Shown in pieces: positions 12,964-53,075 of a stretch of DNA of 64,000 bases. The first letter of the stretch is position 1, and every line of letters starts with the position of its first letter. The DNA comes from Massospora cicadina (taxonomy: Eukaryota; Entomophthoromycota; Entomophthoromycetes; Entomophthorales; Entomophthoraceae). The notes beneath the pieces are model-generated. The model was not told the origin of the DNA and did no database searches. It worked only from the letters and a program-made list of their open reading frames with translations. The DNA lies in contig JAKSZP010013532.1 of assembly GCA_022478985.1 (NCBI GenBank), forward strand, positions 1-64,000. Reading direction: 5' to 3'. Made by a program: the position numbers and the translations under genes.

Positions 12964-13012
12964 GACATCATGAATTTTTTTTTTAGTACTAGATGGTGAC
13001 ATCATGAATTTT
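12964..13012 (-). repeat. Micro-retroposon copy 1 with 15-bp target duplication
   Basis: GACATCATGAATTTT occurs at 12964-12978 and again at 12998-13012. Between them lie 19 nt (12979-12997), which on the minus strand read ACCATCTAGTACTAAAAAA. The equivalent place in element J (about 39733-39760) has a single AT..TGTGAATTTTCCA with no insert, so J is the empty site. The same 13-nt core plus A-run recurs at 32270 and 53043, each with its own target duplication. Confidence 0.85.
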
Positions 13013-13113
13013 CCATTCTTCAGGTAGAGCAACTCGGTAGGCAACCTTCCCAATGACCTCCTTTACCTTATTTGGTCCTACATGCCGATGGGCTAATTTA
13101 TGGCATGGTACAT

Positions 13114-14300
13114 TTAATGGAACATTGCGAGCATCCAAATAAACTTCAATCTCAACTTCCAACATCTTCCCAGGAACTCTTTTTTATCTGCAAAATCCTT
13201 GTAGGTCTGCACTGCTCGAGTTAAATTTTCTTGACATAATTCATAGGTCTGATGAAAATCCTTTGGAAATTCTCTTCCTGATGGATTGTTCACTTCAGTA
13301 GTTGGCAGTGGTTCCCAACTCACGTCATAGCCATATTTAGCCTTAAAGGGTGACATTCCAATGGAGGCATGGCTATATTGTTGTAACAAAACTGGGCCAT
13401 TTGTAACAGCTCAACCCAATTATCCTGTTCAGCATTCACATAACATTTCAAGTACTGCTCCAGCACCTGATTGACCCGTTCAGTTTGACCATCTGTTTGG
13501 GTATGATATGCAGTAGACAGGCATCTCTTAATTCCAGGATCTGACATAACCTGCTTCCAAAAGCGTGAAGTGAACTGTGGGCCTCTGTCAGAGATAACCT
13601 CCTTGGGTATTCCATGATATAAAAAGACCTTCTTTATAAATAGTTGGGCTGTTTCTTTGACTGTGACATTTGTGATCATAGAAATGAAGTGAGCCATTTT
13701 TGTGAAGCGGTCAACTAACAATAAAACTGAATTATACCCCTGAAAATGGGTTAGCTCAACGATGAAATCTAGGGTAACTGATTACCAAGACTTATGAGAA
13801 AACTTCAACGGTTCCAACTGACCTTCAGGATGGCCCCTCCTAGCCTTAGTACGCCCACAAATATCACAAACAGCCAGGTACTTACTAACATCTCTAACCA
13901 GCCCAGGCCAGCGGTAAGTTCTCTGGATGAGAGTTACCATCTTATATCGTCCAGGATGTCCAGCCATTCCTGAGTCATGGTATTCACGTAATATTTCCAT
14001 TCGTTGGGACCCTTTAGGCACATAAAGGTATTTCTTCCAACAGACCAAACGTCCTTTCAGAGAGTATTCCTTGAGGTACCATCCATTATATAAATCCTGA
14101 CTCTGGTCAGCCTTCACACCTTGACAAAACGCATCTTCTTTTTGGGCTTTCAAAATATTATCTTCCCGTCCCACCAAAATCATGTGAGAGAGCTGATTCA
14201 CTGGGTTCCGTGTTTTTAGTAAAACCTGTGTGTTATATTCTGTGATCTCCCCTTCTGCAGGCATTAAGTAAGGGCGACGACTTAGGGAATATGGGACCAC
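13114..14300 (-). pseudogene. Chromovirus F integrase
   Basis: Zinc-binding HHCC part (REYHDSGMAGHPG ... CDICGRTKARRG) at about 13830-14050, then the catalytic core: VDRFTKMAHFI, EVISDRGPQFTSRFWKQ and YHTQTDGQTERVNQVLEQ, giving the D, D and E positions. A C-terminal region with MSPFKAKYGYD follows. The frame changes near 13320-13389 and 13721-13782. The order and sequence match J and other gypsy integrases. Confidence 0.88.
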
Positions 14301-14416
14301 ATTAACCTTCCCAGGCTTGTATCCAATTTCCAGGTCATAATAAGCAAGGGTAAGGGCCCATCTAGCCTGCCGCTGATTTAGCTGGCGCGGAGTAAAAGTA
14401 TGTCAGGTTCTTATGA

Positions 14417-15420
14417 TCAGTCATGATCTTCATGGGGTGTTTTGCCACAAAAGTACCGTCGCCAGTGTTTAAAGGTCTGAACAATTGCCAGAATCTCTTT
14501 GTCATAGATCAGGTAGTTACATTCAGCAGGGATAAACTTTTTGGAATAGTAGGCTATGGGATGAAGTCTACTACCATCCCCCTTTTGAAACAAACCCTCA
14601 AGTGCATATCCAGAAGTGTCAGTCTCAATCACAAAGGGCTTATCATAGTTGGGCATGGACAACACTGGTGAAGAAACAAAGGCAGACTTTAAGTCAGCAA
14701 AAATTTTCTGCCGCTTGGGACCATTTAAAAGGAACACCATCTGATGTGAGCCGTGTCAAGGGTAATGCAATAAAAAAGCCTTTGATAAAATCCCTACAAA
14801 AGTTTGCCAAACCCAAGAAACTGAGAACTTCCTTCCAGCTATTAGGTGTAGGCAAAGATGTGATAGCATTTTTTTCTAAATGCCATGGTAAACCCACTCC
14901 TTCCCACAACATAACCAAGAAATTCAACTTTTCCTGAGCAAACTCACACTTTGAAGCTTGACATGAATGTTATACTCCTGGAAATTCTTAAAGATCAAGT
15001 GCAGATGTCGAAGATGTTCCTATTGAGACTTGATATACACCAAAATATTATCCAGGTAAGCCACGCAGAACTGGTCCATGTACCCACCCAAAACTGTATT
15101 GATCATTTATTGAAATGTACTTGGTGCGTTGCAAAGGCCAAACGGCATGACAAGATACTCAAACAACCCAAACCGCGTCTTAAGCCGTTTTCATTCAACA
15201 CCTTCCTTAATCATGATCTGGTTAAATGCATCCCTCAGATCCACCTTTGAAAAGATAGTAGCCCCAGAAAACTGATCGCTCAAGTAGTCAGCATCAGGTA
15301 AAGGGCATCAGTTCTTTATGGTGATATCATTCAACTTTTGATAGTTTATGCAGGGTCACAAACCTCCATCTTTCTTGCTTACAGATAAAAGTGGAGATGA
15401 ACATGGAGACCAAGGCACTC
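14417..15420 (-). pseudogene. Chromovirus F reverse transcriptase and RNase H
   Basis: RT motifs read on the minus strand: SKVDLRDAFNQI, FGLFEYLVMPFGLCNAPSTFQ and the catalytic box, which is YLDN instead of YLDD (about 15030-15065). RNase H follows: VIETDTSGYALEGLFQKGDG, IAYYSKKFIPAECNY, YDKEILAIVQTFKHWRRY. Several stops and frameshifts interrupt it. Both the lost aspartate and the frames show it is dead. Confidence 0.85.
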
Positions 15421-15859
15421 AAATGGAACCTTTTCCCAACAGTATCCAAGTACTCACATAATGCCACTTGTTTCCGTTCGTTGTAGTTATATATTGGTCC
15501 ATGAGTAGGCTGCTTCCCTTCTACAAAGTCTATTGAATGATCAAAAGGCTATGAGATGGCAGAATCCTCGCCTCTTATTTGTTAAACACTTAAGACCATG
15601 CTTTAAGATATGCTGGAATCATTCCTTTACATGCCTCCAATAGAACCTTGGGAGATTCCGCAGCATACAACCCTGGAAACATACCTTTACTCAACGCCCA
15701 ATCTTCTCTCTTTCCATTCACTTTGGCTGTGACAGTGTTTCTGCCATAGTCAAGTTGGAGCTCCATCTGGCCTAACCATGGAAAGCCAAGGATTACATTC
15801 TAGGAGTACACTTTAGAATCCAAATTTAAATCTATTTTCAGCGAACTGACTATTAGACT

Positions 15860-16060
15860 TATAGTAAGTGTACAACAGTAGGCAATGGACTGATCCACAT
15901 TTCTCAGGGTTATGGTCAGTGTTCTAGTCCCAATTGGAACTCCTAACTTTTTTACCATTTTATCTGATATAAAGTTCCAGGAGGCCCCACTATCCAGTAA
16001 AGCCTCAGTATGGAATATAGTATCTCCAATTATCTAACGTATAGGAAAAACAGGGTAAGA
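15860..16060 (-). pseudogene. Chromovirus F aspartic protease
   Basis: Retropepsin-like segment with the active-site motif ALLDSGASWNFIS on the minus strand near 15970-16010, followed by KLGVPIGTRTLT. It lies between the gag zinc knuckle and the RT, as expected for the gag-pol order of Ty3/gypsy. It is broken by stops downstream. Confidence 0.75.
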
Positions 16061-16125
16061 TTGAGTTTCATTTTTTATTGCAAAGGCAATTAATGAAGCT
16101 TAACCTTTCTTTGAACATTGGTAAG

Positions 16126-17184
16126 CTAAATGACCAGCTCATTGCAAGAATAGCACAATCCTTCCTTGTAATGACGTTGATATTCTTCAAGGCTCATGTT
16201 GGTAATTTGTCTTTTATAAGCAGACTCTTTCCATATGAAAGTTCTACCCATAAACAGATTTGAAGTGATTCCAAGCAATTCTTTTAAAAGCAGGGTGATG
16301 GGGTGGTGTCTGATCAAATCTGACATATGACTTTCTAACCCTTGTCTGAAGTAAAGTGCTCCCATTTCTTCATCTAATTCAGTCTTCTGGAAGATCTCCA
16401 GAAACTTCTGCTTATAACTCTCAACAGTTTGACCTTCCTGCCGAAGGTTCATCAAGGCAAAGCGTGCCTGTAATCTGGTACTAGCAGGAGTTGCTGAGCC
16501 AGCAACTGGCTTTTAAACTCTTCATAATTCATTCAAAAATTCTCATTTTCTTCCAACGCTTTAATAAACCAACCCAAAGCATCTATAGAGAGCTGAGAAA
16601 CCACCGCCATTACCTTCCATGAATAATCTGGGTATTATAAGAATATGCTTTAAAATGCGCCCCAACAATGTAAGTCCTCCTTTTACATCAGCTAATATTA
16701 ATTTTTAGGCAATGGAACCATAGGATAGTTCACGAGCGCATGGTTAGCCACAGTCACTTTTTGAAATTGACTTGGTCCTATTGCTTCTTTATAAGTCATA
16801 TCATCTTGTTTTATGGAGAAAAACATCCATGCTAATGTCTGGTAACCTTTCATCAATAGCAAATGATAAAGCTCCAAGTAATAAAAACGTGGAAGGATAT
16901 ACTTTGTAAAACTCGGCGGTCAGATTGTCAGGAACTGGTACTACTTTATCCCTGTTTGTGATAGCAAGCCGTGAACTTGCTAACCCTGAGCTAAAGGTCC
17001 AGTATAACAAAGGGGCAGTGCATACCATATAGAGAATGGCAAGGGCAATTGGGTGGTTTAGCACTATAGAAGGATAGATTGATTCAACCACTATCATTCC
17101 GGTTAATACCAGTACACCAGCTATGTTTGGACATGGAAGTAATGGAAGAGGAATTTGTTCATGTATAGGTGTTTCTGCACCCAT
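16126..17184 (-). pseudogene. Chromovirus F gag, starting inside the 5' LTR
   Basis: The open frame begins at 17184 inside the LTR (LTR ends at 16926) and runs through the LTR/internal junction (VPVPDNLT) into a hydrophobic segment (YPSTFLLLGALSFA). After breaks it resumes with the capsid-like part QEGQTVESYKQKFLEIFQKTELDE and a CCHC knuckle whose CYSCNE and GHLAYQC halves lie in different frames near 16100-16150. The LTR part is itself hydrophobic (IAGVLVLTGMIVVE, PIALAILYMV). Expected role: nucleocapsid/capsid protein. The start in the LTR is inferred from frame continuity. Confidence 0.7.
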
Positions 17185-17665
17185 GGTTATAGGCTTTGTG
17201 GATTAATTGGTTAGACTGTATAGCTTGTTTACTATACGGTATATGGAAAAGTTATAAAGAAAATATGTACTTAAAGGGTTTAGCATATGATAATATTTTA
17301 TTGACCGCAAATACTAACCATTTGAATCATCTAGGTTTATATCCCATCCAACTTCCTGGATTTTCCTAAGCTTATTTGTTTTTGAACGGAGCACTATAAT
17401 TCTTTGAGCTTATGGGATTGCGCCTTGCATGTGATTTTGAAAGCAGTGGGAATCATCTCAGTCTCATTGTAAATTCATTTTGGTGCGATTAATTGGCTCA
17501 ATATCATTGCAATTAAGGTAATTTAAGCGATTAATTGAACAAAACTCTTTACAATTATGATTTGATATGCAAATAATTGATCTAACTTCAGCACAAATCC
17601 TCTTGATCTGATGAATTGTATCTGAGATCTCAAGAATTCCTCTAATGTCAGGCTTTACCCTGATA
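16926..17665 (-). repeat. Chromovirus F, right (5') LTR, 740 bp
   Basis: It starts TGTCAGG (16926) and ends CCTGATA (17665; one base off CCTGACA). On the minus strand a TATA-like GATATAAACC lies at 17335-17344, and about 30 nt downstream lies ATTTGCGGTCAA (17301-17312), a probable transcript start that is complementary to the primer-site region next to the LTR (16915-16925). Confidence 0.85.
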
Positions 17666-25100: not shown

Positions 25101-25335
25101 CTACTGCAAACTCAACTCTTTGATCAGTATGTACAATTATACACCGCCATAAATTGACAACTTGTTTCTACCATTTCTAGGAACACAGTATTTATTGGCT
25201 ATGTATACTATTAATGGACACTGACAGAATGAGCTAGCGCCTAAGGTATGACCCAAGTACGCTTTACTAGCTAATGAAGGGTGCTAAACTGACCTGGATG
25301 TTAAAGGGTCTGCAACCCCTATTGTAACTTTTAAA
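22101..25335 (+). mobile_element. Old gypsy-like remnant G1, 5' half
   Basis: A heavily decayed LTR-element coding region on the plus strand. At about 24025-24070 it has a retropepsin-like ASIDSGSPVTLSHK. At about 25050-25120 it has the start of an RT (LLDHKKDGR ... VVIYYCKLNSL, resembling K-K-D-G and Y-R-K-L-N). The order protease then RT fits Ty3/gypsy. The region is cut at 25335 by LINE B, and RNase H and integrase traces follow on the other side (30623 onward). LTRs were not identified, so the left edge is a guess. Confidence 0.55.
25316..25335. repeat. Left 20-bp target-site duplication of LINE B
   Basis: CCCCTATTGTAACTTTTAAA, identical to 30603-30622. Confidence 0.95.
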
Positions 25336-25383
25336 TTTATTGCGGGGAAGGCTGACCATGGGATGGACACTTCCAAATATGAC

Positions 25384-26333
25384 TCAGACGAGACAAAACT
25401 CAGTACCAGGTGAGGCACCCCAGAGAAGCGATGCTATCTCTTGTTGCCAGCGGGAACGCCACTTATGGGAAGGGGAGGGAACGTGTGTAGGGGGCGTAGC
25501 CACTATTGAGCACGTGTGGAGGAAGGGGTCTGATTTGATGAACCAGACTGGGAACCAGGAGGAGACCAGCTGCCGGCGACGTGGTGGGAGATATCTAAAC
25601 ATCCACGCTTGAAAGTGATCCACCAAATGAGACCGGAATCTGTGGACAGCTTCAGGGAGGGTGGGGATGGATCCGGCGATGGCATCCAAGACAATCGTGT
25701 GGATAGTCCACATGGCGATTGCAACCACCAGAGCACGAAGGGAGGGTGGGAGGGGGAGGCCATTGATGAAGCAAACATATCTCTTGACAGACTGAAGGGA
25801 TGTGTTTGATCCTGGCCTAGCAGACGTTGGACTTCGCGCCATATTACTTTAGAGGTGGGGCACTTCTCCAGGCGGTGAAACAGCGTTCCATACTGGCCAC
25901 ACACGACACAGGATGAGTGTAAAGCGTTAGAGCGCTCAGCTGTACGATACACCCGCCTCAGGCAGCGCCACACATGGGAACGGACTTGAGGCTGCAACAG
26001 AGGATGGTGTGCGTATTTCCAGATATTCTTTTGGGTCTCAGTGGAATAAGGGATGTCCATCATGTCCAGGTAGTCCACCCTGGATAGGACTTGGGGTTGA
26101 ATGGGGATCACGCCATCATGGATGGGTAGCCCCTGTACCTCTTGTGTGAACTGAGGAGAGGGGCGGCCTCTTTGGGTTGTATGTCCCCTAATATGAATTC
26201 TCCACTCTGCGCTTCGCATGGAGAGTAGGATTCGTTTGTAGTGGGTTTTTGTCCCGTGAGGACCTGTGGCTGATGTGTGTGATGCAAGGTATTTCATCAG
26301 GGAGTGGGGGTTTGATGGGTTGTTGAGGCCCAA
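25384..26333 (-). pseudogene. LINE B ORF2 C-terminal domain with CCHC finger
   Basis: A 276-aa open stretch. It contains SALHSSCVVCGQYGTLFHRL with EKC next, i.e. C-x2-C-x7-H-x4-C, the C-terminal finger typical of L1-like ORF2 proteins, which helps the RT engage its RNA or target. The end of the protein continues in another frame at 25384-25842, so there is one frameshift near 25500. The copy C equivalent is 60719-61368. Confidence 0.85.
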
Positions 26334-26336
26334 GGC

Positions 26337-27700
26337 TCAGGAGAAGTTGGAGCGGGCCGCGCGGGACCAGTGTTGGGATGGGAGTGTAGGAGCAGTGACG
26401 GCCGCAATCCAGGTGCCTAGGATCTTGGCGGCATGGGCTTTGAAGTCAAGTAGGCCCATGCCACCATGATGATGAGGGCCAAACATGACCTCTAGCCATA
26501 CTGGTGGAGGGCGGCCTGACCAAAGCCAACCTTGCAGCAAAGCATACAGGGATTTGAAGAAGCTTGGGGAGAAGGGGATGGCGTGGGCTCCAAACCAGAC
26601 TTTGGATAGGAGCATAGAGTTGGCAAGAACAACCTGCCAGTGAGGGTAGTAGGGTGGGCTCTGAGAGAGGCGATTCGCTTCGTCACGTTGTCCAGTATAT
26701 GGCCCTCCATTACTGCTGACGCGTATCCTCCTGCCTCCAACCACACGCCCAGATGGCGTACCGGTCCTATGGTAGGTCGTGGCACAAATGGGAGCACCAG
26801 TGGAGCGGTGTGTTTTGAGTTAGTAAGGCGTGGACTTGGGCGAGCAGCTGGGCTGGGTTGGGAACTACTTGCTGGGGCCCAGCAGTTCTGAAACCGACCA
26901 AGGAGGATGATTTCAGTTTTGGAGGCGTTCAGTGCCGCGTTGCTTACCCGGGAATATTCCTGGATGAGGGCTTCAAGCGCGCGTGCATCTTTATTATTAG
27001 ACACCCCCACCACGCAATCATCTGCAAATGCCATCATCTTGACTGGGGTTTGGCCTGGCACATGGACCCCAGTGAGTTGGGCATTCACATTTCGCAGTAG
27101 TGGGTCAAGGCTGAAGTTGTATAAGAGTGGGCTCAGGGGGTCCCCTTGTCACAGGCCCCTTTGAGGATGGACTACATCCGTTAGGAAACCTGGGCCGCGC
27201 ACAGCCATTGTTGCAGATTCCGTGAGCAGCATCACCCAGTTAATGAAGCGGGGAGGTAGGCGGAATTGTTGGAGGCAGGCCCTAAGGTATTCCCAGTTTA
27301 CTCTATCATAGGCCTTTTGTTGGTCCAAGAATACAAGTGCCCCAGAGGCTGTGGACTGACACACATTAGCCACAGAGTGCACGTTATCCCAAATCGACCT
27401 TCTGGGGATGAAACCAAATTGTTCTGGAGAGATGGTGGCAGATGCTACAGTCCCTAAACGGTTAGCCATGATTTTTGTTAAAATTTTGGTGTCTGTGTTT
27501 GTTAGAGAAATGGGGCGCCAGTTGGCTAAGTCTAGCCTATCCCCTTTCTTGAAGAGTGTGACTGTAAAAGCCTCATGTCCTCCTGGTAGGAGGCGCGTTT
27601 CCAACAGGCTTTGGTTGAGTGAGGCTAGCAGCAATGGGGATATGTATTTAAAATATTTTTTGTAGAACTCATATGGAATGCCATCTGGGCCTGGGCATTT
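26337..27700 (-). pseudogene. LINE B reverse transcriptase
   Basis: RT domain in three open pieces (27634-27149, 27088-26492, 26744-26337). Motifs: LANWRPISLTNTDTK, SPEQFGFIPRRSIWDN, VFLDQQKAYDRVNWEYL (motif A), the GLRQGDP region (interrupted near 27149) and MMAFADDCVVGVSN (intact catalytic FADD). The breaks between pieces are a nonsense change near 27149 and a frameshift near 26640. The expected product copies LINE RNA at the nicked target. Confidence 0.9.
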
Positions 27701-28177
27701 TCAGTTTGGCGCACCACGAATGGTAGTCCATAATTCATTCGGAGTAATTAAATTCATTATTTCTGGGTATCAGAAAATGGTGCGGATATGAGCTCTGTCG
27801 AGAAATTCCGCCATTTCGGCCAGCTGAATTGGTTCGGCTCGGTATAACTCGGAGTAATATCTTTGCATTTTGATTGCCACTTCAGCCGGTGTGTCCACGA
27901 TAGAATTATCTGATCTTCACACCTGTGTGCAGGCCACACTCTGGCATGGTGCAAAATTTTTTTTGAAGAAGTATGCAGTGCACTTGTCACCTTTAGTGAT
28001 GCGTGTGGCCCTATATTGGACACAAACCCGATGTTTGTGTTGCCTTTCAAGTGCGTTGAGGTGTGCTGCTGCCTCCGCCCACTTCTGGCCCCATGCAGGG
28101 CTATATCCTGAGGCTGGAATGTTGGACTCCAAGTGGGCCAATTCCACCAGCGCGCGCGATATAACCGCCGATGTGGC

Positions 28178-28822
28178 TCATGAGCGTCTGGATGAGAGAT
28201 GGCGATAGTGGCGGATGGTGTCTTTTTTGAAAGTTGCCCATGTGGAAATGGGGTCCGTGCAAAACGGTGCAACAAATAATTTTGCCAAAGTTGCCTCTTC
28301 CACCCACATGGAAAATCCTGGTGACGCAAGCTCTGGGGGGCGGATTTTGCACCAATGTGGGGCCTTTGCAACTGTGATGGGTAAGTGGTATGTTATTGAG
28401 ACCAGTCGGTGGTCAGAGAATTCCATTTTTGTTGTTTTGAAGTGGGAGATGTGGGGTTGGAATTTTGCCAGCACTAGAATAAGGTCAATGCGGGTCATGG
28501 ACCTTAATTAGCCATTGTGGATGTGGGGATGCGTCATGTTTTTGAGCAGTGGGGCATGTCATGGCAGCGCATCCATTAACCCAAGGGTGGCTTTTAGAAT
28601 GCGTAGTTCTATGTGACCCTGTGGGGCGTGGGGTGAGGGCGGCCACCGGTCCGTTGGTGAGGTTAGCCAACAGTTCATGTTGCCAATTAGGAAAGAATCA
28701 GGGGGTAGCGGGAGGGATTTGAACAATGAGAAAAATTCCTGATGCTCTTGTGCACCATTTGGGGCGTAAATGTTGACAATTGTGTGTGCAACATCAGCCC
28801 AAGAGAAGGTGACAACGAGCAC
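28178..28822 (-). pseudogene. LINE B endonuclease, C-terminal part
   Basis: Continuation of the AP-type endonuclease after a TGA at 28823-28825. It reads TFSWADVAHTIVNIYAPNGA, FLIGNMNCWLTS (usual GDMNCW motif has D changed to N), IDLILVLAKFQPHISH and EFSDHRLVSITY (catalytic S-D-H). Frameshift near 28500-28560. The equivalent in copy C is one 342-aa open frame, which shows that the stops here are secondary. Confidence 0.85.
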
Positions 28823-30509
28823 TCAGTCATTTAGGAATGTTTCTGAAGATATAAATTTGAAAAAATTGTTTTTCCAAATTAGCACCCCACAGTGCTTTGA
28901 CCAAAAGGATAGGGATGGTAGGAGCATTGTTTTCCAAGCATCCTCGGAACCTCGTGGACAGTGGGTTTCCTGGATGGCCAGGATATCCACGGGTAAATTA
29001 TTTTGTAAAAAACTCAGCTTCCTAGCCCGGGATGGGGAGGCCTTGAGTCCGGCGATATTCAGCATCCCTAGAGTGAAGGTTTCCCCATCGCACCTTAGGT
29101 GCGAGGGGTGGGCCCCTGGCCCACCAGCCTCTTCCAGGTCCCCACGGGCTTTCACAGCAGTGCGGGTATTAGCAGCAACGCTATCAGGGTTTTTATTAAT
29201 TTTTGCGGAAAGAGTCACATTGGCTTTGGCCTTCACTTTTTGTTTTCCTGACATCGGACGAATTTTTTGCGGTGCGGATAAGTTTGGTGCACCGTCGAGT
29301 GGGGCAAAAAATTTTTTTTCGGTTGGGATAGGTCCCAAGTCAGTTTCAACTGGGGCTTGGGTGCAGCGATTGGGTGAGATTGAATCTCCCATCGGATCCT
29401 TGGATTGAGTGGCCCATTTGGCTTGGGCCTCCCAATCTGATTGGGTGATGGATTCCCAAGTTGCTTCCGCCGTGAAGGTCTCCATGTCCTCCTGGCGTTG
29501 TGAGTGTGGGATGGTGGTGGTGACCTTGGCCGCTTCCTTGGCTGCAGTCCTATGGGCTTGCTTAGCCTTCTTCCGCTCCTGCGGGGAGATGGGCTTTACC
29601 AATAGGTAGCAGCCTTGTGCTCCCCACGGGAAGGCCTCTTTGGTGCTTGCGGTTGGTTCATAGTGCGCCTCTCCGCTGGCCATGGCCGCCGAGGGGTGCT
29701 CTTGGAATGTAACGCCCTCTTTAATGGGGCATGCATGTGCCTTATGGCTGAACGCGTCACAGTGGGTGCAAATGGGGGGCGCGCTGTCCACGGTTACCTG
29801 GAATGGGTGGGTGGTGTGCCCTGCGATGTCAATAAAGGTGGAGTGCGGGATCTGGGTTAGGTCCTTCGCGATCTCCTCAGATGGGGTCAGAACTGCGATG
29901 GCTTTGCCGGTACACAGGTGTGGCATCAGCATGAAACGTTGCATTTCAAAAGATTGTATTTTGCCATATATGGTGAGACCATCTTTCAGGTGTTGCTCCA
30001 AAATGTCACGTTTTACTGTAGTAGGCAAAAAGTCAAACGTGAGGAAAATTTGGTTCAATTTTATCCATCTGGTGCATTTAGTTTTGATGACCCATTGCCC
30101 TTCGGGGAGGTTGACCACTACGTGCACCGCTGCAGCCTCGTCTGCTGCTATTTTTCTTTCAAAACCTAGGTCCAGCCAACCATGTGACATGGAGTGAGGT
30201 GCAACGTACACCGCAGTCAGGAAAATTTTGTGTACATCTTCACAAAATTTTTCCCATAGGGCCGTTTTTTGGATGTCCAGATACACACAGACTCCAAATT
30301 CCACCGATGAAAGTGGCTGGGAATGTGGCGTATTGATGTACTGGTTGCATCGTGCTTGCCACGCGAGTATCTCTGGGGAAATTGTGACCACCAGTTTTTT
30401 TTAAATTTTTTTCTATTCCGCCAGATTCTCCGGGGCGTTTTTGAACGTTAGAGGCCGCGGGCCTTCCGCCTGCTCCTCTTGCTTTGCTTGCCCAACTGCT
30501 CCCAGACAT
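28823..30509 (-). pseudogene. LINE B ORF1 fused in frame to the endonuclease start
   Basis: A 522-aa open frame (30391-28823), preceded by an ATG at 30509 in another frame (MSGSSWASKARGAGG); a single-base change in an A-run near 30400 separates them. It contains the gag-like domain (VCVYLDIQKTALWEKF, TFDFLPTTVKRDILEQHL), the CCHC knuckle CTHCDAFSHKAHAC, a Lys/Ala-rich linker, then LGMLNIAGLKAS and VDILAIQETHC, the first endonuclease strands. ORF1 and ORF2 therefore share one frame in this copy. Confidence 0.88.
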
Positions 30510-30602
30510 GGGCGCAGACTAATCCCCTCTATGAGATTATCAAACCGGATTTAGTCTTGAATTGAATGGGTTGCAAAAGTGTTTGCAACGAGAAAGAAAA
30601 GT

Positions 30603-30622: not shown

Positions 30623-33170
30623 GAGCTACATAAAGGCTTTTAGGGGACCTCAAGCTATCATATAAATTGGTATATCTTGATAACATTACAAACTCATAAC
30701 CTTTAACAGCCTTCCTTAAATTCTTCAAGAGTTACTAATCAGATGTGACAGGCTTCCCTTAAACTTAAAACATTCAAATGCTCCTTTAAGCAATCTAAAA
30801 TAGAATCTATAGGGCATAAGGTTACACAACAAATGATCCAGCTCATATACAGCAATATTGCCATAATTTTAGAGATTTTCCCCTTCTAGTCATTAGTATA
30901 TTCAAAAACCAGTGATTGTGTGATACTATAAGAAGTTTATTCCTAATATAATGATCTTGAGGAACCCCTAGTGTACCTTCTTCTGGAAAGGCTCCTATTA
31001 AGTAAAACTTTTAACAGAAAAAAACCTGCATCCTTTTGAGGACTTCTTTGGTTTCAAAGCCTATCCTCATCCCTCCACAATTTGGTTATATTTTACTACT
31101 GTTTACTAATACCAGCAACGAGGCTGTGGGCGTTATACTGGAACAACCTGACGACTACCAAGTAGATCACCATGTGGCCTAATTTCAAAGCCTTATACAA
31201 AGCTGAGCAAACTAAAGCATTAATGAGCTAAATTTTCTAAAAGTCACTTTCAGCTAAGCACTTCTGCACATATCTATACAGGGTACACTTTGATGTAATA
31301 TAAATACATCTCCATCCAATGGTTAAAGTAAATGAAGGATCCTGATAGGAGATTGGAGAAATGGGCGCTTATTTTCAGAGTTACAATTACAAGGTTGTAA
31401 TGCACTGGTGCAGTCCATCAAAATGCTGAAGGGCTATAAATATGCCGTTACTAACTAGGATAACTACAACGGAAGACCATCTATATAGCCTAATTAGATG
31501 CAGAAAGTTGGTAGACGTAGGTCTCTGAGACACAGGCTAAGTTGGGAAGGACAAGCAAATTTCAAAGATTTAAATGCATATTCTAAATATCTCAAGTAAT
31601 TGATGGCTTTCATATGTGTAGCCCTCTTCTTAGACCAATATCATACTTGATGAACCCTTGAAAGTAGGATTTGTAGAGCTAAAGAAAACGTATGAATGGT
31701 TAAGAAAGCAATGCTATTAGATCAAATACAAAACCATATACAGTGAGTCAGAGGCATACTTACCTTATAAATTTATACACTTACCAAGATCAACACCAAG
31801 TGTTGACACCCTCAGGTCTATTCAGGTGACTAGCATCGATATTGTAGGACCCTAGCTCACCAGATTTAATCTTTATCAAATTATCCTTGTAGCAATAGAT
31901 TACTTAACAAAGTGGTTTGAGGCTATGCCTTTTACTAAGCAACAAAAAATATTATCAAAATTAATTCCTTTTGTCCCATTTCATACAACACACATCTCAT
32001 ATACTGCTCTCAAAAAAACAGCTTTAATTTACTTCCAAGATAATACAACTGACAACTTTTTTGGAACCAGTTAAACTTTATCATTCATTATAGCCCTTTG
32101 ATTGATGAGGTATTTTTGTTTGGGCAAATAAAACGTTAGTTTCAACTCTATTCAATATGCTAGCAATTGACCCAAATTAATAGAACCAATACTATAAAAT
32201 TCTTTACTAGCATATAGAGTAAGTTACTATAAAAAATCAATATGTCGCCCTTTAAGGCTCTCTATTAAACCATCTAGTACTAAAAAAAGGCTCTCTATTA
32301 AAGTCAACCTCGTCAATAATTTAACATTCAATAACAGTTAAAGGAAGCTGCACCAGTTAACTCCAATTTACAATGATAGTACTGGCTGAATGAAATTACC
32401 TGATTGCAGGCATTTGTTACAAACAGCACTATTTTGACTATTTCTATAAAGACAGAAAAGTTTAACTTTCAATTAATAACACTCTTATCTTTCCAGGTAG
32501 GAGACCTAGTTTTGTTCTACCATCACTGACATGTCAGTCATCCAAACAAACTTGACAACTCCTAGTTGAGACCCTATTGCGCTATCCTCAAAGGATTATT
32601 CAATAGTATATAGCAGACACCAACCTTGGTATTTTGGTTAATCAAGTCCACGGTAGATTTCTTTGAGCTTCTTTCTCCCTATATACAGTATATTGTAGGG
32701 GAACGGTCAGAGTTTGAGAAGAGTAATAAATCACTCCAGACTTTAAAATTAAGTCCCCCTCAAATTGCCATTGATAAGCCTCCTCTGACTAATATAACCT
32801 TGAGTGAAATAGGGTTATAAAGTTTTAACTAAGAATCTACATTAGGGGTTGATAAATCTTTGCTATAAATCGACACAAAACTGAAACGGATTCATAATTT
32901 CCAACAAAAATATATGTAAGCTTTAATATTTTATGGAGTCAAGAGTCACCAGATGTTATAATTAAAAGATATTGTTTGACGTTTAATTAGAAAAGACAAG
33001 GAAGATCCTGATCAAGAAGGGCCTAGACGTTCCTATTGCCACAAACTTCCCACACGCTTTTTAAGTAACAATTAAAGTAAATAAAGTAAAGAAATAGCTC
33101 TTTCACTTCAATAAAACTACTCGTTGAATTTGATATTGCAAGTTTATTATTATGTTAACCCTTGTTGTTC
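30623..33170 (+). mobile_element. Old gypsy-like remnant G1, 3' half
   Basis: Continues the broken plus-strand element across LINE B. RNase H traces at about 31090-31160 (NTSNEAVGVILEQ) and 31340-31400 (RRLEKWALIF.SYNYKVV-like after frame changes). An integrase core at about 31830-31960: SIDIVGP, then ILVAIDYLTKWFEAMPFTKQ, resembling the VDYFTKW.EA block of Ty3/gypsy. Every frame is full of stops. The right limit is arbitrary; LTRs were not found. Confidence 0.6.
32254..32302 (+). repeat. Micro-retroposon copy 2 with target duplication
   Basis: GGCTCTCTATTAAA (up to 16 bp if flanking A's are counted) occurs at 32256-32269 and 32289-32302. Between them is CCATCTAGTACTAAAAAAA (32270-32288). 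The leading A of the ACCATC core is shared with the end of the target duplication. Same core as copies 1 and 3. Confidence 0.85.
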
Positions 33171-39449: not shown

Positions 39450-39497
39450 TCATCCCCCACCAAGGCTGAAGCTACCTGTGAGGCCTTCTTCTTCCAT

Positions 39498-39782
39498 TTA
39501 TAATAGCTTGCCTGCATTCTTTAAGTTCTCCTCAGGCTCCCAAGTGCTCTCTTCTGCAGGATATCCAGCCCACTTAACCAGATATTGCACTTTACCATGG
39601 TGTGTTCTTCTCCCTTTGATAGCCTCCACCTCATACTCAGGACAGGGACCTTTAATCAGTGGTGGTGCTAGCTCTTTGACTTTCTGGTGTGGTAGAGAGA
39701 TTCCTTCTTTTTTGTGCAAGAGGGAACGATGGAATACATTGTGAATTTTCCAACCTTCAGGCAATTCAAGACGGTAAGCCAC
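39498..39782 (-). pseudogene. Chromovirus J chromodomain and integrase C-terminus
   Basis: 94-aa open frame: LPEGWKIHNVFHRSLL (the conserved integrase C-terminal/GPY-adjacent segment), then the chromodomain with YEVEAIKGRRTHHGKVQYLV and KWAGYPAEESTWEPEENL. This is the best-preserved chromodomain of the F/J group. It is joined to the integrase core upstream through frameshifts near 39800-39950. Expected role: targeting integration to chromatin marks. Confidence 0.88.
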
Positions 39783-45636: not shown

Positions 45637-46435
45637 ATGATTGGAGGTGACTGTGAGATGGCGGCCTGGGGGAAACGCTGGTGGAAAGCCTCTATCAATC
45701 CTTGGGCATGGGCTCAATCCCACGCAGGAACCCAACTGTTCTCTGCCGCATCAAACCCCTTCCATGACACCAGGTACTCCAGTCTTCTCTTCACACGATG
45801 TGAGGCAACAATCTCCTCCACTTCCCACTCTGGCGCCCCATCCACGAGATATGCCTCGGGAATCTCTGGAGGGGAGCCCTCAAACAATGTAAGCTTGCTC
45901 TCGTGGAAGACAGAAAAGATATGAAACGAGGGGGAAGATCCAACTGGTATGAGGCATGACCCACCTTCTTAACAACACCATAAGGCCCAATCCTCTTAGG
46001 TCCCAGCTTCTTGCATGGCTGCTTGATTGGGATATTTTTCACATCCAGCATTACCAGATCTCCTTCTTTATATGCTGGTCCAACCCGTCTCTTACTATCT
46101 GCGTTCTCCTTATAAGCCTGCATGGCCGCATCTAAATTCGTGCTCACCCCTTTGTGGACCTTCTTGATCATTTTTGCAAAGTCCACCACTGCTTCCACCT
46201 TGGAACCACAAGCAGGCTCCATGTTGAAGGCGGGATTGAAGCCATAGTTAGCAAAGAAGGGGGAACAACCGATTGATGCATGTTGCAGGTTTTTATAACT
46301 AAATTGGGCCATAGTGAGATGAGAAACCCAATTCAAATGATCTGCGGTGGTGTAACACTGCAAGAACTGTTCAAGCACTGTTTCACTCATTCCGTCTGCC
46401 CATCCAATTGGGGGTGATAGGCAGTTGAACGGCAA
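45637..46435 (-). pseudogene. Chromovirus K integrase C-terminus and chromodomain
   Basis: 46435-45791: LEQFLQCYTTADHLNWVSHL, GCSPFFANYGFNPAF, EGDLVMLDVKNIP and LGPKRIGPYGVVKKVGHASY, the GPY/F-type integrase end. After a frameshift, about 45730-45880 holds the chromodomain: EWEVEEIVASHRVKRRLEYL, VSWKGFDAAENSWVP, with the expected aromatic and W positions. The rest to 45637 is a low-complexity tail. Confidence 0.85.
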
Positions 46436-47024
46436 GGGCGGATTTTCAGAGTCTTACACAACTCCTCCCAAAAGACAGAGGTAAACTGGGGGCCCTGATC
46501 ACTCACTATTTCCTGGGGGACCCCATGAAGGGCGAACACATGGGTAATGAACAGTCTAGCCATCTGCGCCGCGGTGACTGTGGTCTGGCAAGGGATAAAG
46601 TGGGTTAACTTCGTAAAACGGTCCACCACCACCATGATAGCATCATAGCCATCAGAATTAGGTAACTCCACAACGAAATCAACTGATAGGGAAGTCCAAG
46701 GGCCCTCAGCCTTTTGGACTGGTACCAAAACCCTGCGAGAGGCTGCCGATTTGGTTTCATTTGGTTGCAGACTAGGCACTCTTTACAGTACCGGCCTACC
46801 TGAGCGGATAATCCCTTCCAATTGTAAGTGCAGCGGATAAGCTTAAGGGTCTTCGCCTTTCCTGGATGACCAACAGTAATTCCATCATGATGGTCCCAGA
46901 TGATTTCCAGGCGAGGTGGTCCATCAGGAACCCATAAGCGCCCCTGGATCCACACCATCTCATCCTTCACGTGATAACCTCTGGCAATATCCTCCTGATT
47001 CAAGGCGCTCTTTGCAAGGACCAT
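46387..47024 (-). pseudogene. Chromovirus K integrase core
   Basis: HHCC part: DHHDGITVGHPGKAKTLKLI, YCKECLVCNQMKPN. Catalytic core: SVDFVVELPNSDGYDAIMVV, VDRFTKLTHFIPCQTTVTAA, EIVSDQGPQFTSVFWEEL and TAYHPQLDGQTE, i.e. D, D and E positions in place. A single shift near 46700-46780 divides the HHCC part from the core. Confidence 0.9.
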
Positions 47025-47167
47025 AGTATATTCAGCTGAAAATGGCTGAAAAAGACCTCTTTTCTGAACATACCATATTCCTCCGCATTTTCTAGAGAAG
47101 AAAGCGCTGGCTTCTTGGCCAAGGGAGTGGGAAGTGGGGATGCAATCTGACCTGGCGGAATCATCAA

Positions 47168-48611
47168 CTAGGTATTGTGCATCTCAACCTCCTTGGGATC
47201 AGTAGCTAGGGCAGGGTTGCGGCTTAAGGCGACCGCCAACCCATTCTCCTTGCCCTTGGTGAACTCATAAGAAAACACAAATTGGGCAAGGGTCTCATGC
47301 CACTGGGTTTGCCGTGGGGTCAGGAAATGAGGTGCGCGGTAGTACAGCAAGGCGCGGTGGTCTGTACGTACATGGAATGGTTGGGTAGAGCCATGCAAGT
47401 GGTGACGCCAATAAGTCAACGCCTCCACCACTGCTAGTAACTTGTCATAAACAGCGTAATTCAACTCTGGCAAAGACATCTTCCTAGAAAAATATCTCAC
47501 CGGATGCTCTATTCCATCTTCACCTACTTGTAAAAGGGCTGCTTCTATGGCAAAGTTGGAGGCATCTGAAGCAACAATAAACTCTTTCTTTGGGTCGACA
47601 TGGCGAAGAACAGTAGTGGACAGCAACGTACACTTTACTTCTTGGAAGGCGTCCTCCAAAACGGAAGACCACTGTAGTACTTTTGCCCCACTCGCCTTAT
47701 ACAAAGGCGTGGCAACTTCAGAAAGGTTTGGGGTGAACTTCTTAAGGAACGTACACGTCCCCAAAAAACTTCTCAACTCCTTTACTGACGTTGGAGTGGG
47801 CCACTCACGAATCGCCTTCTCCTTGTCTGGAGTTATCATGTGTCCTTGGTCGAACACAACGTTTCCCAGAAACGTGACCTGGGACTTAAAGAACTCGCAC
47901 TTTGATATTTTCAACGTAAGGCAGGCTGCCTTTAACCGCTCCACCACCTGCCGAAGGTGACCTGCATGGGATTCCTGATCAGGGGAAAACACCAGGATAT
48001 CATCCATGTAAGCAACCGCGCATACCCTAACAGGTCCCCCAACGCTGCATCAATGCGGCGTTGGAAGATAGCAGGAGCATTCTTAAGCCCAAAGGGCATG
48101 ATCCAAAACTGGAAGATCCCTTTTTGGGTACAGAACGTGGTCAACCACTCTTGTCCCTTTTTAATCCAAATCTGATTGAACGCATTGAGGCAATCCAACT
48201 TGGAGAAGACTTCTCTACATAACGTTCAATCTGCGAATCCAAAGGGATGGGATGGAGGTCTAGTACAGTAACGTTGTTAAGGTTACCATAGTCTACGCAG
48301 GGGCTTAAGGTACCATCAGACTTCTACACGAAGAGTAAGGTGGAGCATACAGGGGAGGTACGCTGAAAAATCGCACCCTTAGCTAACTGTTCTTTCACCC
48401 ACTCATCCAACGCCTCTTCCTCCCGGACAGTTAAAGGGTAAATAGGAGAAGAGATACGCACTAGATTCACTGTGAGCTTGAAGTCACAATCAAACTCAGA
48501 GTGATCAGGGAGTGCGTTGGCAGATGTTGCATCAAAAGAGGATTCCAAACCACCCAAGCAAAAAGTATAGGGATTTCCACTGAGGGCTTCTGCATTGAGG
48601 CAAGGATACAA
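47168..48611 (-). pseudogene. Chromovirus K reverse transcriptase and RNase H
   Basis: RT N-terminus at 48324-48611 (IYPLTVREEEALDEWVKEQL), palm region at 47932-48198 (DCLNAFNQIWIKKGQEWLTT, MPFGLKNAPAIFQRR), catalytic YMDDILVFSPDQ and connection at 47168-48007, then RNase H (VASDASNFAIEAALLQVGED, DKLLAVVEALTYWRHHLHG, VRTDHRALLYY). The 279-aa last piece is continuous from YMDD through RNase H. Frameshifts lie near 48000 and 48200-48320. Confidence 0.9.
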
Positions 48612-49237
48612 GGGATACGGTGGGGCCAGTTGGGCAAGTCGCCTGGGGCATTTTCTTTGGACAAAGGCACAACAAATGTGCGACCATTCTTCATGGTGAG
48701 AGACAAGGTATTCTCCTTCTGGTTAGTTCTTACGTCAAACTTCCGCCACCATTTTACACCCAAAATGATAGGGAACAGGAGGTTTTTGATCGCACTGAAG
48801 TGATCAGACAAGTGGTACTTGGCAACCTGATAATCCACTGTTCCAATGATCTTCAGAGTGGGAATACCCTGGGACGCCCCTCCTCTATCCACATCACCTG
48901 GCAAGTAACTCAGACCAAGGTAGTCGGCTAAGTACTGGTCCATATAGTTTCCAGTAGCGCCAGTATCCACCAAAATAGTAGTGGTAAGTTTCCATAAAGG
49001 CGAGGAGAGGGTAGCAGTCAATAGAAAATACCCAGAATGGTCTTTATTTATGGAAGATAATGACAACAATTCACCAAAGTTCTCATTATCTAGCTCAAGC
49101 CTGCACACAGAATGGGTTTGGGAATCAAAAAAGGGGGTGGGATATTTGGCCACTCTTAATACTGAGGCCACATACCCCACCATGCCTTCTGCAGGTGCAT
49201 ATACTTGATTATATCTGAAACGAAATTCCTTCTCCAC
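48467..49237 (-). pseudogene. Chromovirus K protease region
   Basis: 256-aa open frame. Contains TTILVDTGATGNYMDQYLAD, the aspartic protease active-site motif, then LKIIGTVDYQVAKYHLSDHF, and ILGVKWWRKFDVRTNQKENT, the usual stretch between protease and RT (resembling I-L-G-x-x-W). It opens directly after the gag frame (stop near 49241). Confidence 0.85.
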
Positions 49238-49240
49238 CTC

Positions 49241-49786
49241 CTAAGTGCCCCAGATCATGGTAGAGGTCAACCGTGGGTTCTCAGGGGTAATTTGATGCAC
49301 AGAAATAGAGTCCTCATCCAAGCCATATGACCAAACAAAAGAGTCAGAGATAGAGGCCAGGGTTTCATTATAAAACGCATTTTTAGACGCGAATGACCCT
49401 AACCCTGAAACTGTGATGGAATGCCCAACGTTATCCAAGGCCAACACCCCCAGGCCCATCTGCGCTGATTCCGCCGGCATTGTCTGAATGCGCTGGTGAT
49501 GAAAAATCTGTTTTTCAGAATGAAATTTAGTAATTTTGGTGGAAAGTTGGGGAATCACAACTTTCAGACATCGAAGTGTCTGACTCCACCAGGTATGAAC
49601 ATGAAGGGTGAATACTTTCCAGTTGGAGGCAACCAAAATAACGCCGAGTTGCTCCAACCTTCTGAAAAATGAGGAAACAGCGGTGCAGGTAATGAAAGCT
49701 GGAGCCCAAAGCTGATGGCCACTGTTTCCACTTTGGAAAATTTCCACGCGAAAAAGTTCTTGCACATAGGAAAAGGTGTTTGTCAT
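49241..49786 (-). CDS. Chromovirus K gag-like ORF starting at the LTR edge
   Basis: 181-aa open frame with ATG at 49786-49784, so the start codon overlaps the last six bases of the 5' LTR (ATGACA). Segments include FITCTAVSSFFRRLEQLGVI and WWSQTLRCLKVVIPQLS. Position between the LTR and protease makes it Gag by context, but no zinc knuckle or classic capsid motif is visible. It is offset from the LTR-coded frame 49527-50144 that runs through the same junction. Confidence 0.6.
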   Translation of the reverse strand: MTNTFSYVQELFRVEIFQSGNSGHQLWAPAFITCTAVSSFFRRLEQLGVILVASNWKVFTLHVHTWWSQTLRCLKVVIPQLSTKITKFHSEKQIFHHQRIQTMPAESAQMGLGVLALDNVGHSITVSGLGSFASKNAFYNETLASISDSFVWSYGLDEDSISVHQITPENPRLTSTMIWGT

Positions 49787-50144
49787 CTAATATTAGGAGA
49801 GTATCTGTAACTCTCCGTTTCCCAGCATGTCGGTGCAGATCGCACAAGGCCAATACCAGGAAACCAGCCAATATAAGGGCAGCAGCTAGTGCCCCACAGA
49901 TGGTGCTGGAGCTGGAGCAGCTAACTGCAAAAGTGGTTATCCACAGTGGGAAACCTTCAATGAAAATGACAGGGTGCTGGTTGGGAGCAGTAGGGAGTGG
50001 CACAGGTTGGATGAAACCTGGGTGGCTCAACGGAGCACCGAAAGAAGGTCTTACTGTGGTTATGATCAATTGGTTAATATATTGCGAGACCTCCTTGAAG
50101 AGGTTCGCGCACAGGTTAACTGGAAATAACATAGAAATGTGCAA
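49527..50144 (-). CDS. Chromovirus K LTR-started ORF with transmembrane-like segment
   Basis: 205-aa open frame starting at 50144 inside the right LTR and crossing its end at 49781. It has a Pro-rich stretch (PVPLPTAPNQHPV), then a strongly hydrophobic helix (ICGALAAALILAGFLVLALC) followed by a basic segment (HRHAGKRR), as in a type II membrane anchor. The left LTR (44464-45045) codes a near-identical N-terminal region. After the LTR it is out of frame with the gag ORF at 49241-49786, so either a recent indel or a frameshift links them. Confidence 0.6.
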   Translation of the reverse strand: MHISMLFPVNLCANLFKEVSQYINQLIITTVRPSFGAPLSHPGFIQPVPLPTAPNQHPVIFIEGFPLWITTFAVSCSSSSTICGALAAALILAGFLVLALCDLHRHAGKRRVTDTLLILDDKHLFLCARTFSRGNFPKWKQWPSALGSSFHYLHRCFLIFQKVGATRRYFGCLQLESIHPSCSYLVESDTSMSESCDSPTFHQNY

Positions 50145-50642
50145 AAAATCGGGTTTTATTAAAATGGAAAGATGAACAACAAGGAATGTTAGTCAGGGGA
50201 AAATGTATTTAAGCTTGGATGGGGAAATTGGGGTTATGCCACAGTGGGCCCAAGAAGCGACTCGCCAATAGGGTGATACTTCCATCCAAGTTAGTAAAAT
50301 AGGCTGAAACTGACTTCACTCGAGTTAATAACTGAAGTTGAATCTGACCTGAGCGCGTTATTTCATAGCAGGAACAGGTTTTGAACTCTTGTTCCGAAAC
50401 TAAGAACACCAAAATCATCCACCTTAATTTGGTAAATAGTTCGTTTTAATGCGAATGCCTTGCTGCAAGGCTGGGCCTTAGGTTCCTCCTCCAGGCCAAC
50501 CTGAGCATACCTGGCCTGCACCCAGCGCTGGTCCATGGTATGCTTCAGGTCCGGAAGGGCCTGAAGTTTCACCTTTTGGGCTTTTGGCGCCCAGCCTTAT
50601 CTTTAGCATTTACCCCCACAATAATGTCATTGGTGCATGAAA
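49781..50642 (-). repeat. Chromovirus K, right (5') LTR, 862 bp
   Basis: TGTCA start; end is TGAAA, with one base changed relative to the TGACA of the left LTR. Followed at once by the TGATC duplication. Confidence 0.9.
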
Positions 50643-50647
50643 TGATC
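50643..50647. repeat. Right target-site duplication of chromovirus K
   Basis: TGATC; partner at 44687-44691. Confidence 0.8.
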
Positions 50648-51929: not shown

Positions 51930-52189
51930 CTGATCCCATTTGGCACACCTGATAGTTAATCACTACCAGATTCCCCTATTTCGTCAGCAACTCCACCTGA
52001 TGAGATCTTAAGCATTTGTCTGGATTGATCCCCAATGGATACAACCAAGCAAATATCTTAAAACCCCCAAACATAGTTACTCTAAAATTAGTGTCAACTG
52101 ATTTCAATCCACCATGCATTAGGAAATTATTCCCTAGCGATTCCTGGTAATCTAGCAGGCTGGGAATATGGGTAAAATTTTCCAACACA
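51930..52189 (-). repeat. Element H, right LTR, second part
   Basis: Resumes the H LTR after LINE I. CACCTGATAGTTAATCACTA and the sequence to CCAACACA match 34592-34831. Its first 16 bases (51930-51945) are the right-hand target duplication of LINE I. Confidence 0.85.
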
Positions 52190-52595
52190 CATGCTGACTA
52201 CATCCTGCAGTTTGTGGTTTCAAAAGGTGGCAGAAGCCTTGTAGGGACTCTCGCCTCTGTGACAATCCACCCCTACCACTGAGATAACCATATTACCATT
52301 ACCCCCACACTGTGATCTGATCTGCCGGACCATCCTTTCTTGCCCACATGGAGAATGTCTGCATTGTCTGACCTTTGTGCTTTGGACTTGTCATCTATAG
52401 TAAGGATGTCCTTCCATTGCCTCTGTCATAGCCTCCACCCCTCCTTCCTCCAGTGATCGCCCTCCTGCCACTATAGCGGAATTCTATAAGTGTGGATCCA
52501 TCCTCACTACTCCTCCTATCTCAAAAGATGCAGGCGTAGCCCTGCTGCAATTGGCGTTGTAGCATTAATACAGCTAGCACAGGTAATTTTTACAC
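52190..52595 (+). mobile_element. Type III LINE copy M, second part
   Basis: Plus-strand YILQFVVSKGGRSLVGTLAS matches the ILQFVV block of copies I and N, and near 52350-52400 the PLCFGL segment corresponds to the decayed CCHC knuckle. It continues M from 33708, showing that element H went into this LINE. The right edge is uncertain. Confidence 0.65.
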
Positions 52596-53023
52596 TAAAA
52601 TAACAAGTAATCCGTATGAGAACAGAACCCTGAGAAAAAAATTATAATCCTAAGCTTATTGTTATGCGTTTTTTAGGGAATCATAATGAACCACACTGTA
52701 GTATCTAGTACTGACAATGGTGGAGGGCACATAGGTGAGGATTTTCTTCATCTGTGCTGGCTTTAGCAACAAACAATTAAAAGTCAAAAAATCACTTGAC
52801 AATCATAATCCATTCTTTTTAATCCTATTCAAGTCCCAGGTTCCTATTGGCACCATTTTTAGGATATTGGATGCTTGCATGATTGGTTGAATAAAATGGA
52901 AATAATTAAACCAAATAGTGATTATTGTATGCCTTTGGGGGAAAAGGCCAAGTATATTAAGCTTGTATTTATGACACATCTCAGCGGAGTAACTGATATA
53001 GAGTAATAATAAATAATAAATAT

Positions 53024-53075
53024 AAAATGTGATTTGGATGGGACCATCTAGTACTAAAAAAAATGTGATTTGGAT
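53024..53075 (+). repeat. Micro-retroposon copy 3 with target duplication
   Basis: AAAATGTGATTTGGAT occurs at 53024-53039 and 53060-53075. Between them is GGGACCATCTAGTACTAAAA (53040-53059), or up to four more A's depending on how the A-run is shared. The 13-nt core is identical to copies 1 and 2; here it is preceded by GGG. Confidence 0.85.

What the first reader, a model, noticed from the sequence alone, without database searches (positions are those of the whole stretch)
12964..53075. A micro-retroposon: three copies of a 13-nt core plus A-run, each with its own target duplication
ACCATCTAGTACT followed by A's occurs at 12979-12997 (minus), 32269-32288 and 53043-53059. Each copy is bounded by a different direct repeat of 14-16 bp, so these are three independent insertions and not copies of a larger repeat. 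The A-tail and duplication length are those of LINE-driven target-primed reverse transcription. All three share nearly the same 5' start, which random 5' truncation of a long RNA would not give. The source could be a very short RNA, a strong RT stop near the 3' end of a longer RNA, or the tail of an unseen SINE. I know of no described element this small.
Basis: seen in the sequence. Interest (0 to 1): 0.88.

Follow-up and report, generated by a model that had tools for sequence, protein, structure and literature searches.

The report
Jumping gene leaving thousands of stubs
The three tiny inserts are tail-end scraps of one jumping gene (a LINE retrotransposon) whose last 13 letters plus an A-run occur 30,390 times in this 1.47-billion-letter genome, likely that of the cicada fungus Massospora, and 90 of 100 copies examined hold less than about 45 letters of the gene, likely because its copying enzyme stalls almost as soon as it starts.

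Summary
In detail: three copies of ACCATCTAGTACT plus an A-run, each inside its own perfect 15-16 bp duplication. One has an empty counterpart in a related LTR element. They are not a stand-alone micro-element. The 13-mer plus A5 occurs 30,390 times in the host genome (reversed control 0). Longer copies run into a LINE; one copy was checked and has endonuclease and reverse-transcriptase domains ('LINE-X'). Of the first 100 genome copies, by my reading 65 start -1 to 11 nt upstream of the core, 4 at about 14-15 nt, 21 at about 23-30 nt (just after AATAA) and 10 run further. Genome-wide counts fall in the same order: 30,390, 12,051, 6,725, 2,207. In a second LINE family sampled the same way, 40 of 40 copies run at least 247 nt further. 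So LINE-X insertions mostly end within the last 45 nt of the RNA, at two preferred places. I infer RT arrest at the 3' stem-loop and next to AAUAAA. Very short 3' RNA templates are the main rival; weak junction microhomology keeps it alive.

The parts
12964..12978 (-). target duplication of copy 1, 15 bp (GACATCATGAATTTT on +)
12979..12997 (-). copy 1: ACCATCTAGTACT + A6 (minus strand), 19 nt, inside an LTR element (Ty3-like by my reading of its domains)
12998..13012 (-). second target duplication of copy 1
39733..39757 (.). empty site: the paralogous LTR element carries the target once and no insert (approximate coordinates)
32254..32269 (+). target duplication of copy 2, 16 bp (AAGGCTCTCTATTAAA); its last A doubles as the A of ACC
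32270..32286 (+). copy 2: CCATCTAGTACT + A5, 17 nt
32287..32302 (+). second target duplication of copy 2
53024..53039 (+). target duplication of copy 3, 16 bp (AAAATGTGATTTGGAT)
53040..53059 (+). copy 3: GGGACCATCTAGTACT + A4, 20 nt
53060..53075 (+). second target duplication of copy 3
25330..30602 (-). LINE-A, a different LINE family, used as control; 3' end ...CCTTCCCCGCAATAAATTTAAA; 20-bp flanking repeat TTTAAAAGTTACAATAGGGG
56234..61500 (+). LINE-B, 91% identical to LINE-A, 13-bp flanking repeat AAGAAAGGAGACA

Best explanation
Each micro-insert is a 3'-terminal fragment of one LINE retrotransposon (LINE-X), likely inserted by that LINE's own target-primed reverse transcription and likely cut short because the enzyme stalls at two roadblocks in the last 45 nt of the RNA. 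Shown: the inserts share their 3' terminus with long LINE-X copies, have A-tails and duplications mostly of 15-17 bp, sit where the target begins with A's (nick consensus YTT^A on the priming strand), and have 5' ends bunched at two places. Inferred: the nick is cut by the LINE endonuclease; the enzyme copies the A-tail and the unpaired CUAGUACU; it stalls in about two thirds of events on the 3' arm of a predicted stem-loop (GAUGAAUCCCCCCUUGGGUUGGGACCAUC). A second stall of most survivors lies just 3' of AAUAAA, cause unknown (a protein bound there is my guess). The aborted cDNA is then joined to the target as a normal insertion. Once past both places, copying mostly runs on: 8 of the 10 long copies match the LINE for at least 219 nt.
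For: Source: long copies L002, L004, L006, L013, L051 run from the same terminus into LINE coding sequence; pieces of L051, the one copy checked, match RVT_1 (E 8e-11) and Exo_endo_phos (9e-8). Number: 30,390 exact 18-mers, reversed control 0. Bunching: 65/4/21/10 of 100 by my reading; by script 62 start 12 nt or less upstream, 22 at 13-35, 16 neither. Counts 30,390 > 12,051 > 6,725 > 2,207, and 2,887 for an 18-mer about 42-61 nt upstream. TPRT marks: in 60 micro copies with TSD score 11 or more, TSD median 16 bp, IQR 15-17; in 80 short copies so chosen, 13 mismatches in 1,273 TSD bases, T at -1 of the priming strand in 74 and at -2 in 68, and 64 of the 80 targets begin with AA against 10.7% of positions in background. 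Stem-loop fit: of the 60, 21 end at the first base of the GGGA arm or the C beside it, the rest on the 3' arm or loop; arm pairing probability 0.82-0.96; few ends in the 5' arm (4 of 100 by my reading). Specificity: LINE-A control, 40 of 40 copies run at least 247 nt beyond the probe; of the 38 of 100 LINE-X copies that reach GGTTGGG, 28 start no more than about 30 nt upstream of the core.
Against: The stem-loop is weak (-8.9 kcal/mol for 48 nt) and no better than shuffles (z 0.14, -0.24 and 1.86 for three lengths). It does not explain the second stop. 5' junction microhomology is only slightly above chance: 21 of 60 against 15.3 expected, p 0.04 (18 of 60 by the other reckoning), and 19 of 60 carry extra bases. 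For human 5'-truncated L1, PMC2912911 (passages read) reports nearly 80% with microhomology, so these junctions look more like ends of finished templates than like aborted cDNAs. That LINE-X's own protein does the work is inferred; another LINE could act in trans. The sample of 100 is the first places listed on contigs C1-C8, not a random draw; the probe required A5 and an intact core; TSD figures leave out copies with a low TSD score.
Confidence: 0.68

Rival explanations
1. The templates themselves are short: LINE-X RNA is cut or trimmed, and its 3' tail fragments (about 13-24 nt and about 40 nt plus A-tail) are retroposed by LINE machinery, with RT running off a real RNA 5' end.
For: Microhomology near chance and extra junction bases, unlike truncated human L1 in cis as reported in PMC2912911 (passages). 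Normal TSD length. The second class starts within a few nt of one place, about 4 nt 5' of the stem-loop, where a 5' exonuclease stalled by structure might stop (inference).
Against: Micro-class ends spread over about 12 nt. Some inserts are shorter still: 9 nt (TCTAGTACT; 13 of 20 fetched BTCTAGTACTAAAAA loci have a TSD score of 12 or more with the insert starting at or within 2 nt of there) and 4 nt (TACT + A7 with a 16-bp TSD in L034), which looks like arrest at many points. The LINE-A sample gives no such products, within the reach of its probe.
Confidence: 0.24
2. The enzyme aborts at a fixed distance after priming (start-to-elongation transition), whatever the template.
For: Micro inserts average 21 nt with s.d. 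3.4 (n 60).
Against: Tail length and 5' position are not negatively correlated (Spearman -0.03, p 0.80), though tails vary little. The second sharp class at about 40 nt is unexplained. The LINE-A control shows no truncation within 247 nt, though its probe would miss copies under about 20 nt.
Confidence: 0.05
3. A discrete micro-retroposon with its own gene, unrelated to a LINE.
For: Most of the 100 copies hold only 13-24 nt.
Against: Longer copies share the terminus and continue into LINE coding sequence.
Confidence: 0.01
4. Length bias of survival: long LINE-X copies were deleted and short ones kept.
For: Short inserts should be less harmful (general expectation).
Against: LINE-A copies in the same genome are long in 40 of 40 sampled. 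Deletion would not leave perfect TSDs round stubs with ends at two places; TSD divergence is 1%.
Confidence: 0.02

Closest known systems
5'-truncated LINE insertions (human L1, zebrafish ZfL2-2)
   Same: A-rich 3' end (L1), TSD, T-rich nick site, missing 5' part; TSD peak 14-16 bp reported for full-length L1 (PMC2912911, passages)
   Different: Here 90 of 100 stop within about 45 nt of the 3' end and at two preferred places; microhomology at the 5' junction is near chance instead of nearly 80%
Position-specific template switching of the MGL LINE of Magnaporthe (MINE chimeras)
   Same: A fungal LINE RT that leaves its template at preferred sites, with hairpins predicted next to the sites (PMC2104539, parts 1-3 of 5 read)
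   Different: There the RT jumps to another RNA and the MGL parts are 230-5461 nt; here nothing is added and 13-45 nt of LINE are left
LINEs with a 3' stem-loop recognised by their RT (UnaL2 and ZfL2 type; recalled, no call)
   Same: A stem-loop near the 3' terminus of the RNA (here predicted)
   Different: Here the stem-loop coincides with where copying ends; recognition was not tested
L1 LINEs of Massospora cicadina
   Same: PMC11105155 (passages) reports L1 LINEs as 6.3% of that genome, unlike its relatives
   Different: The passages I saw do not mention stubs; whether LINE-X is in that annotation was not checked

Membership tests
LINE (non-LTR) retrotransposon insertion by TPRT | Flanking target duplication of about 10-20 bp | tested here: met
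   3 of 3 in window; 81 of 100 genome copies at score 11 or more with the 5' copy within 120 nt, control 11 of 1,638
LINE (non-LTR) retrotransposon insertion by TPRT | A-rich 3' tail abutting the duplication | tested here: met
   Window copies A4-A6; 80 sampled copies A3-A8 before the TSD. The probe itself asked for A5, and the script's lower limit was 3
LINE (non-LTR) retrotransposon insertion by TPRT | T-rich nick whose 3' end can pair with the A-tail | tested here: met
   T at -1 in 74 of 80 and at -2 in 68 of 80; 64 of 80 targets begin with AA, background 10.7%
LINE (non-LTR) retrotransposon insertion by TPRT | Same 3' terminus as longer copies that code for endonuclease and RT | tested here: met
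   (domains checked in one copy, L051)
SINE | Full-length unit with a tRNA-, 7SL- or 5S-derived pol III head | tested here: not met
   Long copies run into LINE coding sequence; no tRNA or Rfam hit in the window
Retrocopy of a host small RNA | A separate source gene ending in the core | tested here: inconclusive
   None noticed among 100 copies; no source gene was searched for beyond the pattern
Chimeric retrogene (MINE type) | A second RNA joined upstream | tested here: not met
   In 62 of 100 copies the TSD ends within 12 nt of the core, so no second RNA fits

The most novel reading that the evidence does not exclude
LINE-X is a self-limiting retrotransposon: its own RNA tail acts as a brake that turns about nine of ten insertions into harmless-sized stubs, or, in the bolder form, releases 13-40 nt tail RNAs that LINE machinery inserts in trans as the smallest retroposons known. 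Either way about 20,000 TE insertions sit in the genome below the size that repeat finders can see.
Probability: 0.3. Interest if true: 0.75.

Novelty: new variant of a known kind. Interest (0 to 1): 0.55.

Why it matters
LINE truncation is usually taken to be spread out and blamed on poor processivity or on host repair (general knowledge). Here one LINE family stops at two places near its start of copying, and another LINE in the same genome does not within the 247 nt seen, so the cause of truncation becomes testable in the RNA tail. If 65% of 30,390 hits are stubs, about 20,000 insertions of 13-24 nt plus tail lie below the reach of usual repeat masking (inference). They form a dense natural map of nick sites, junction joining and RT arrest, and could serve as presence/absence markers.

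Tried and rejected
Source ideas dropped: 5S rRNA, snRNA, tRNA or other known RNA (no Rfam or ARAGORN hit in the window; the long copies settled it). LINE-A to LINE-D of the window as source: their 3' ends differ. Fixed-distance abortion: no negative correlation. Dead ends: viral contigs pattern scan 0 hits; plasmid tblastn no match; LINE ORF protein search none at 1e-3 among 1,377 candidates; cyclophilin search uninformative on species. Literature: on very short or bimodal LINE insertions, returned no paper; others (20 of 24 listed; 10; 3; 12 of 26 listed) returned papers on fungal SINEs, retropseudogenes and truncation. Of all these I opened only PMC2104539 (parts 1-3 of 5) and passages of PMC2912911 and PMC2666801; the rest I saw as listings. 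No listing seen describes such stubs, but I do not claim that nothing is in print. A count about 380 nt upstream in LINE-X did not complete, nor a LINE-A count about 100 nt upstream.

Full report
Observation. A scan of the whole window for A-runs with an adjacent direct repeat gives these three as the strongest structures. Copy 1 interrupts an LTR element, Ty3-like by my reading of its domains; its paralogue at about 39.7 kb carries the target once and no insert. Reading the strand that primes, the nicks are TTTT^CC, TT^AAAG and TTTT^ATAT, as expected for LINE-type priming on an A-tail (sequence).

Genome. The held assembly has 1,469,884,898 bases in 16,968 contigs; contig C1 is 1,107,499 bases. 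PMC9584336 (part 1 of 3 read) gives for Massospora cicadina MCPNR19 1,488.88 Mb, 19,694 scaffolds, longest 1,107 kb, 41.13% GC. PMC11105155 (passages) reports mainly Ty3 elements, L1 LINEs and almost no DNA transposons for that species. I therefore take the host to be very likely M. cicadina; no tool named it, and the size and contig count differ somewhat.

Number and source. The 13-mer plus A5 occurs 30,390 times, the reversed control 0; by hand, chance would give about 0.04. Of the 30 first loci, five (L002, L004, L006, L013, L014) continue upstream through or into AGGCTCTTAGGAGCCCAGGCGTAATTCAATAAACATCGATGAATCCCCC..GGGTTGGG and LINE coding sequence (L014 with an internal deletion). L051 has pieces with endonuclease and RT domains over 5.4 kb. 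By blastn it shares only 50-59 bp stretches with the RT region of the window LINEs. I call it LINE-X.

Where insertions end. I fetched all 100 places listed (30 loci of 3,018 bases, 30 of 5,918, 40 of 318). The script placed 62 with 12 nt or less between TSD and core, 22 with 13-35 nt, and 16 neither. Reading all 100 by eye, and moving L008, L030 and L044 to micro and L036 and L062 to the second class, I count 65 micro (-1 to 11 nt), 4 at about 14-15 nt (L026, L029, L034, L052), 21 in the second class (about 23-30 nt; L024 is a diverged member) and 10 long (L002, L004, L006, L013, L014, L051, L063, L069, L082, L087). TSDs scored 9 or more in 87 of 100; three of these (L006, L026, L036) lie 488-1,274 nt apart and are doubtful as scored. 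Of the 10 long copies only L006 reached that score; four of them have 220 nt of flank and five have 1,500 nt, too little for a LINE of over 5 kb. Eight of the 10 match the LINE for at least 219 nt (three of them to the end of their flank), L069 for 79 and L014 for 45 before its deletion. The second class starts with (A)CATCGATG or CATTGATG, directly after AATAA.

Genome-wide counts agree: GGTTGGG + core + A5 12,051; CATCGATGAATCCCCC 6,725; AATAAACATCGATGAATCCCCC 2,207, so about one third of that exact subfamily passes the second place; GGCTCTTAGGAGCCCAGG, about 42-61 nt upstream, 2,887. Exact patterns miss mutated and variant copies, so these are lower bounds and their ratios are rough. BTCTAGTACTAAAAA, copies cut or mutated inside the core, occurs 1,157 times against 38 reversed. 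Of the first 20 fetched, 13 have a TSD score of 12 or more with the insert starting at or within 2 nt of TCTAG; of the other 7, five show a mutated or shortened core in a copy that starts further upstream (L101, L107, L110, L111, L118), one has a weak TSD (L115) and one none (L109).

Control family. LINE-A's 3' 18-mer occurs 5,752 times. The first 40 of the 100 listed places were fetched and 40 of 40 match LINE-A at least 247 nt further upstream, the limit of the fetch being 250. Fair comparison: of the 38 of 100 LINE-X copies that reach GGTTGGG, 28 start no more than about 30 nt upstream of the core. LINE-A copies shorter than about 20 nt would be missed by the probe; a scan of 332 kb with up to 3 mismatches found 5 LINE-A/B ends and no clear stub.

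Mechanism. Shown: TSD median 16 bp (n 60), TSD divergence 13 of 1,273 bases (n 80), YTT^A nick consensus, targets beginning with AA in 64 of 80, A-tails of 3-8. These are marks of target-primed reverse transcription. Inferred: which protein does it, and why it ends. The 3' end can fold as GAUG/CAUC plus UCCC/GGGA; 21 of 60 clear micro copies end at the first base of the GGGA arm or the C next to it, and the remainder on that arm or in the loop, with few ends in the 5' arm, which would be free once the 3' arm is copied. But the fold is no better than shuffled sequence, and the second stop needs another cause. Microhomology is only slightly above permuted expectation (21 against 15.3 of 60, p 0.04) and 19 of 60 have extra bases. 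In human L1 nearly 80% of truncated copies have microhomology (PMC2912911, passages). This keeps the short-template rival alive at about one in four. PMC2666801 (passages) reports that host end-joining can shorten LINE insertions; a host effect of that kind should hit LINE-A too, and within 247 nt it does not show.

Verdict. Not a new element, but an extreme and position-specific form of LINE truncation in one family, likely yielding about 20,000 stubs (65 of 100 times 30,390; sampling error about 10 points).

Noticed in passing
L034 (near its core): An even smaller insert: TACT + A7 (11 nt) inside a perfect 16-bp duplication AGAATATACAACTATA, so arrest may come after only 4 LINE bases.
   Followed up: partly
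L017 and L044: Another A-tailed, repeat-flanked element of about 278-288 nt in both loci (...GGTCAGCCCACCTCAAATAAAATTT); similar size in two places hints at a SINE or a second fixed truncation point.
   Followed up: no
L117: A 9-nt stub lies in GGTTGTGGGTTC|GATTCCCACCC, which looks like the B-box of a tRNA gene or tRNA-derived repeat (my reading).
   Followed up: no
L116 and L120: Two stubs sit within a base or two of the same place of what looks like one repeat (CACTTTGAGGGCTTCAACTTGATAT / CACTTTGAGGGTTTTAACTTGATAT), a possible hot spot or shared ancestry.
   Followed up: no
L014: Long LINE-X copy with an apparent internal deletion joining coding sequence to the last 45 nt upstream of the core.
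   Followed up: no
window 1398-2877 (+): Host gene pieces for a WD40 + cyclophilin protein (PPWD1-like; Pfam PF00400 and PF00160), the only clear host gene noticed in the window.
   Followed up: partly
window 11935-17663, 33709-38628, 38820-44221, 44696-50643: Four LTR-type repeats with paired ends 87-95% alike; retroelement domains (integrase zinc-binding, RT, RNase H) were seen in three of them, which I read as Ty3-like.
   Followed up: partly
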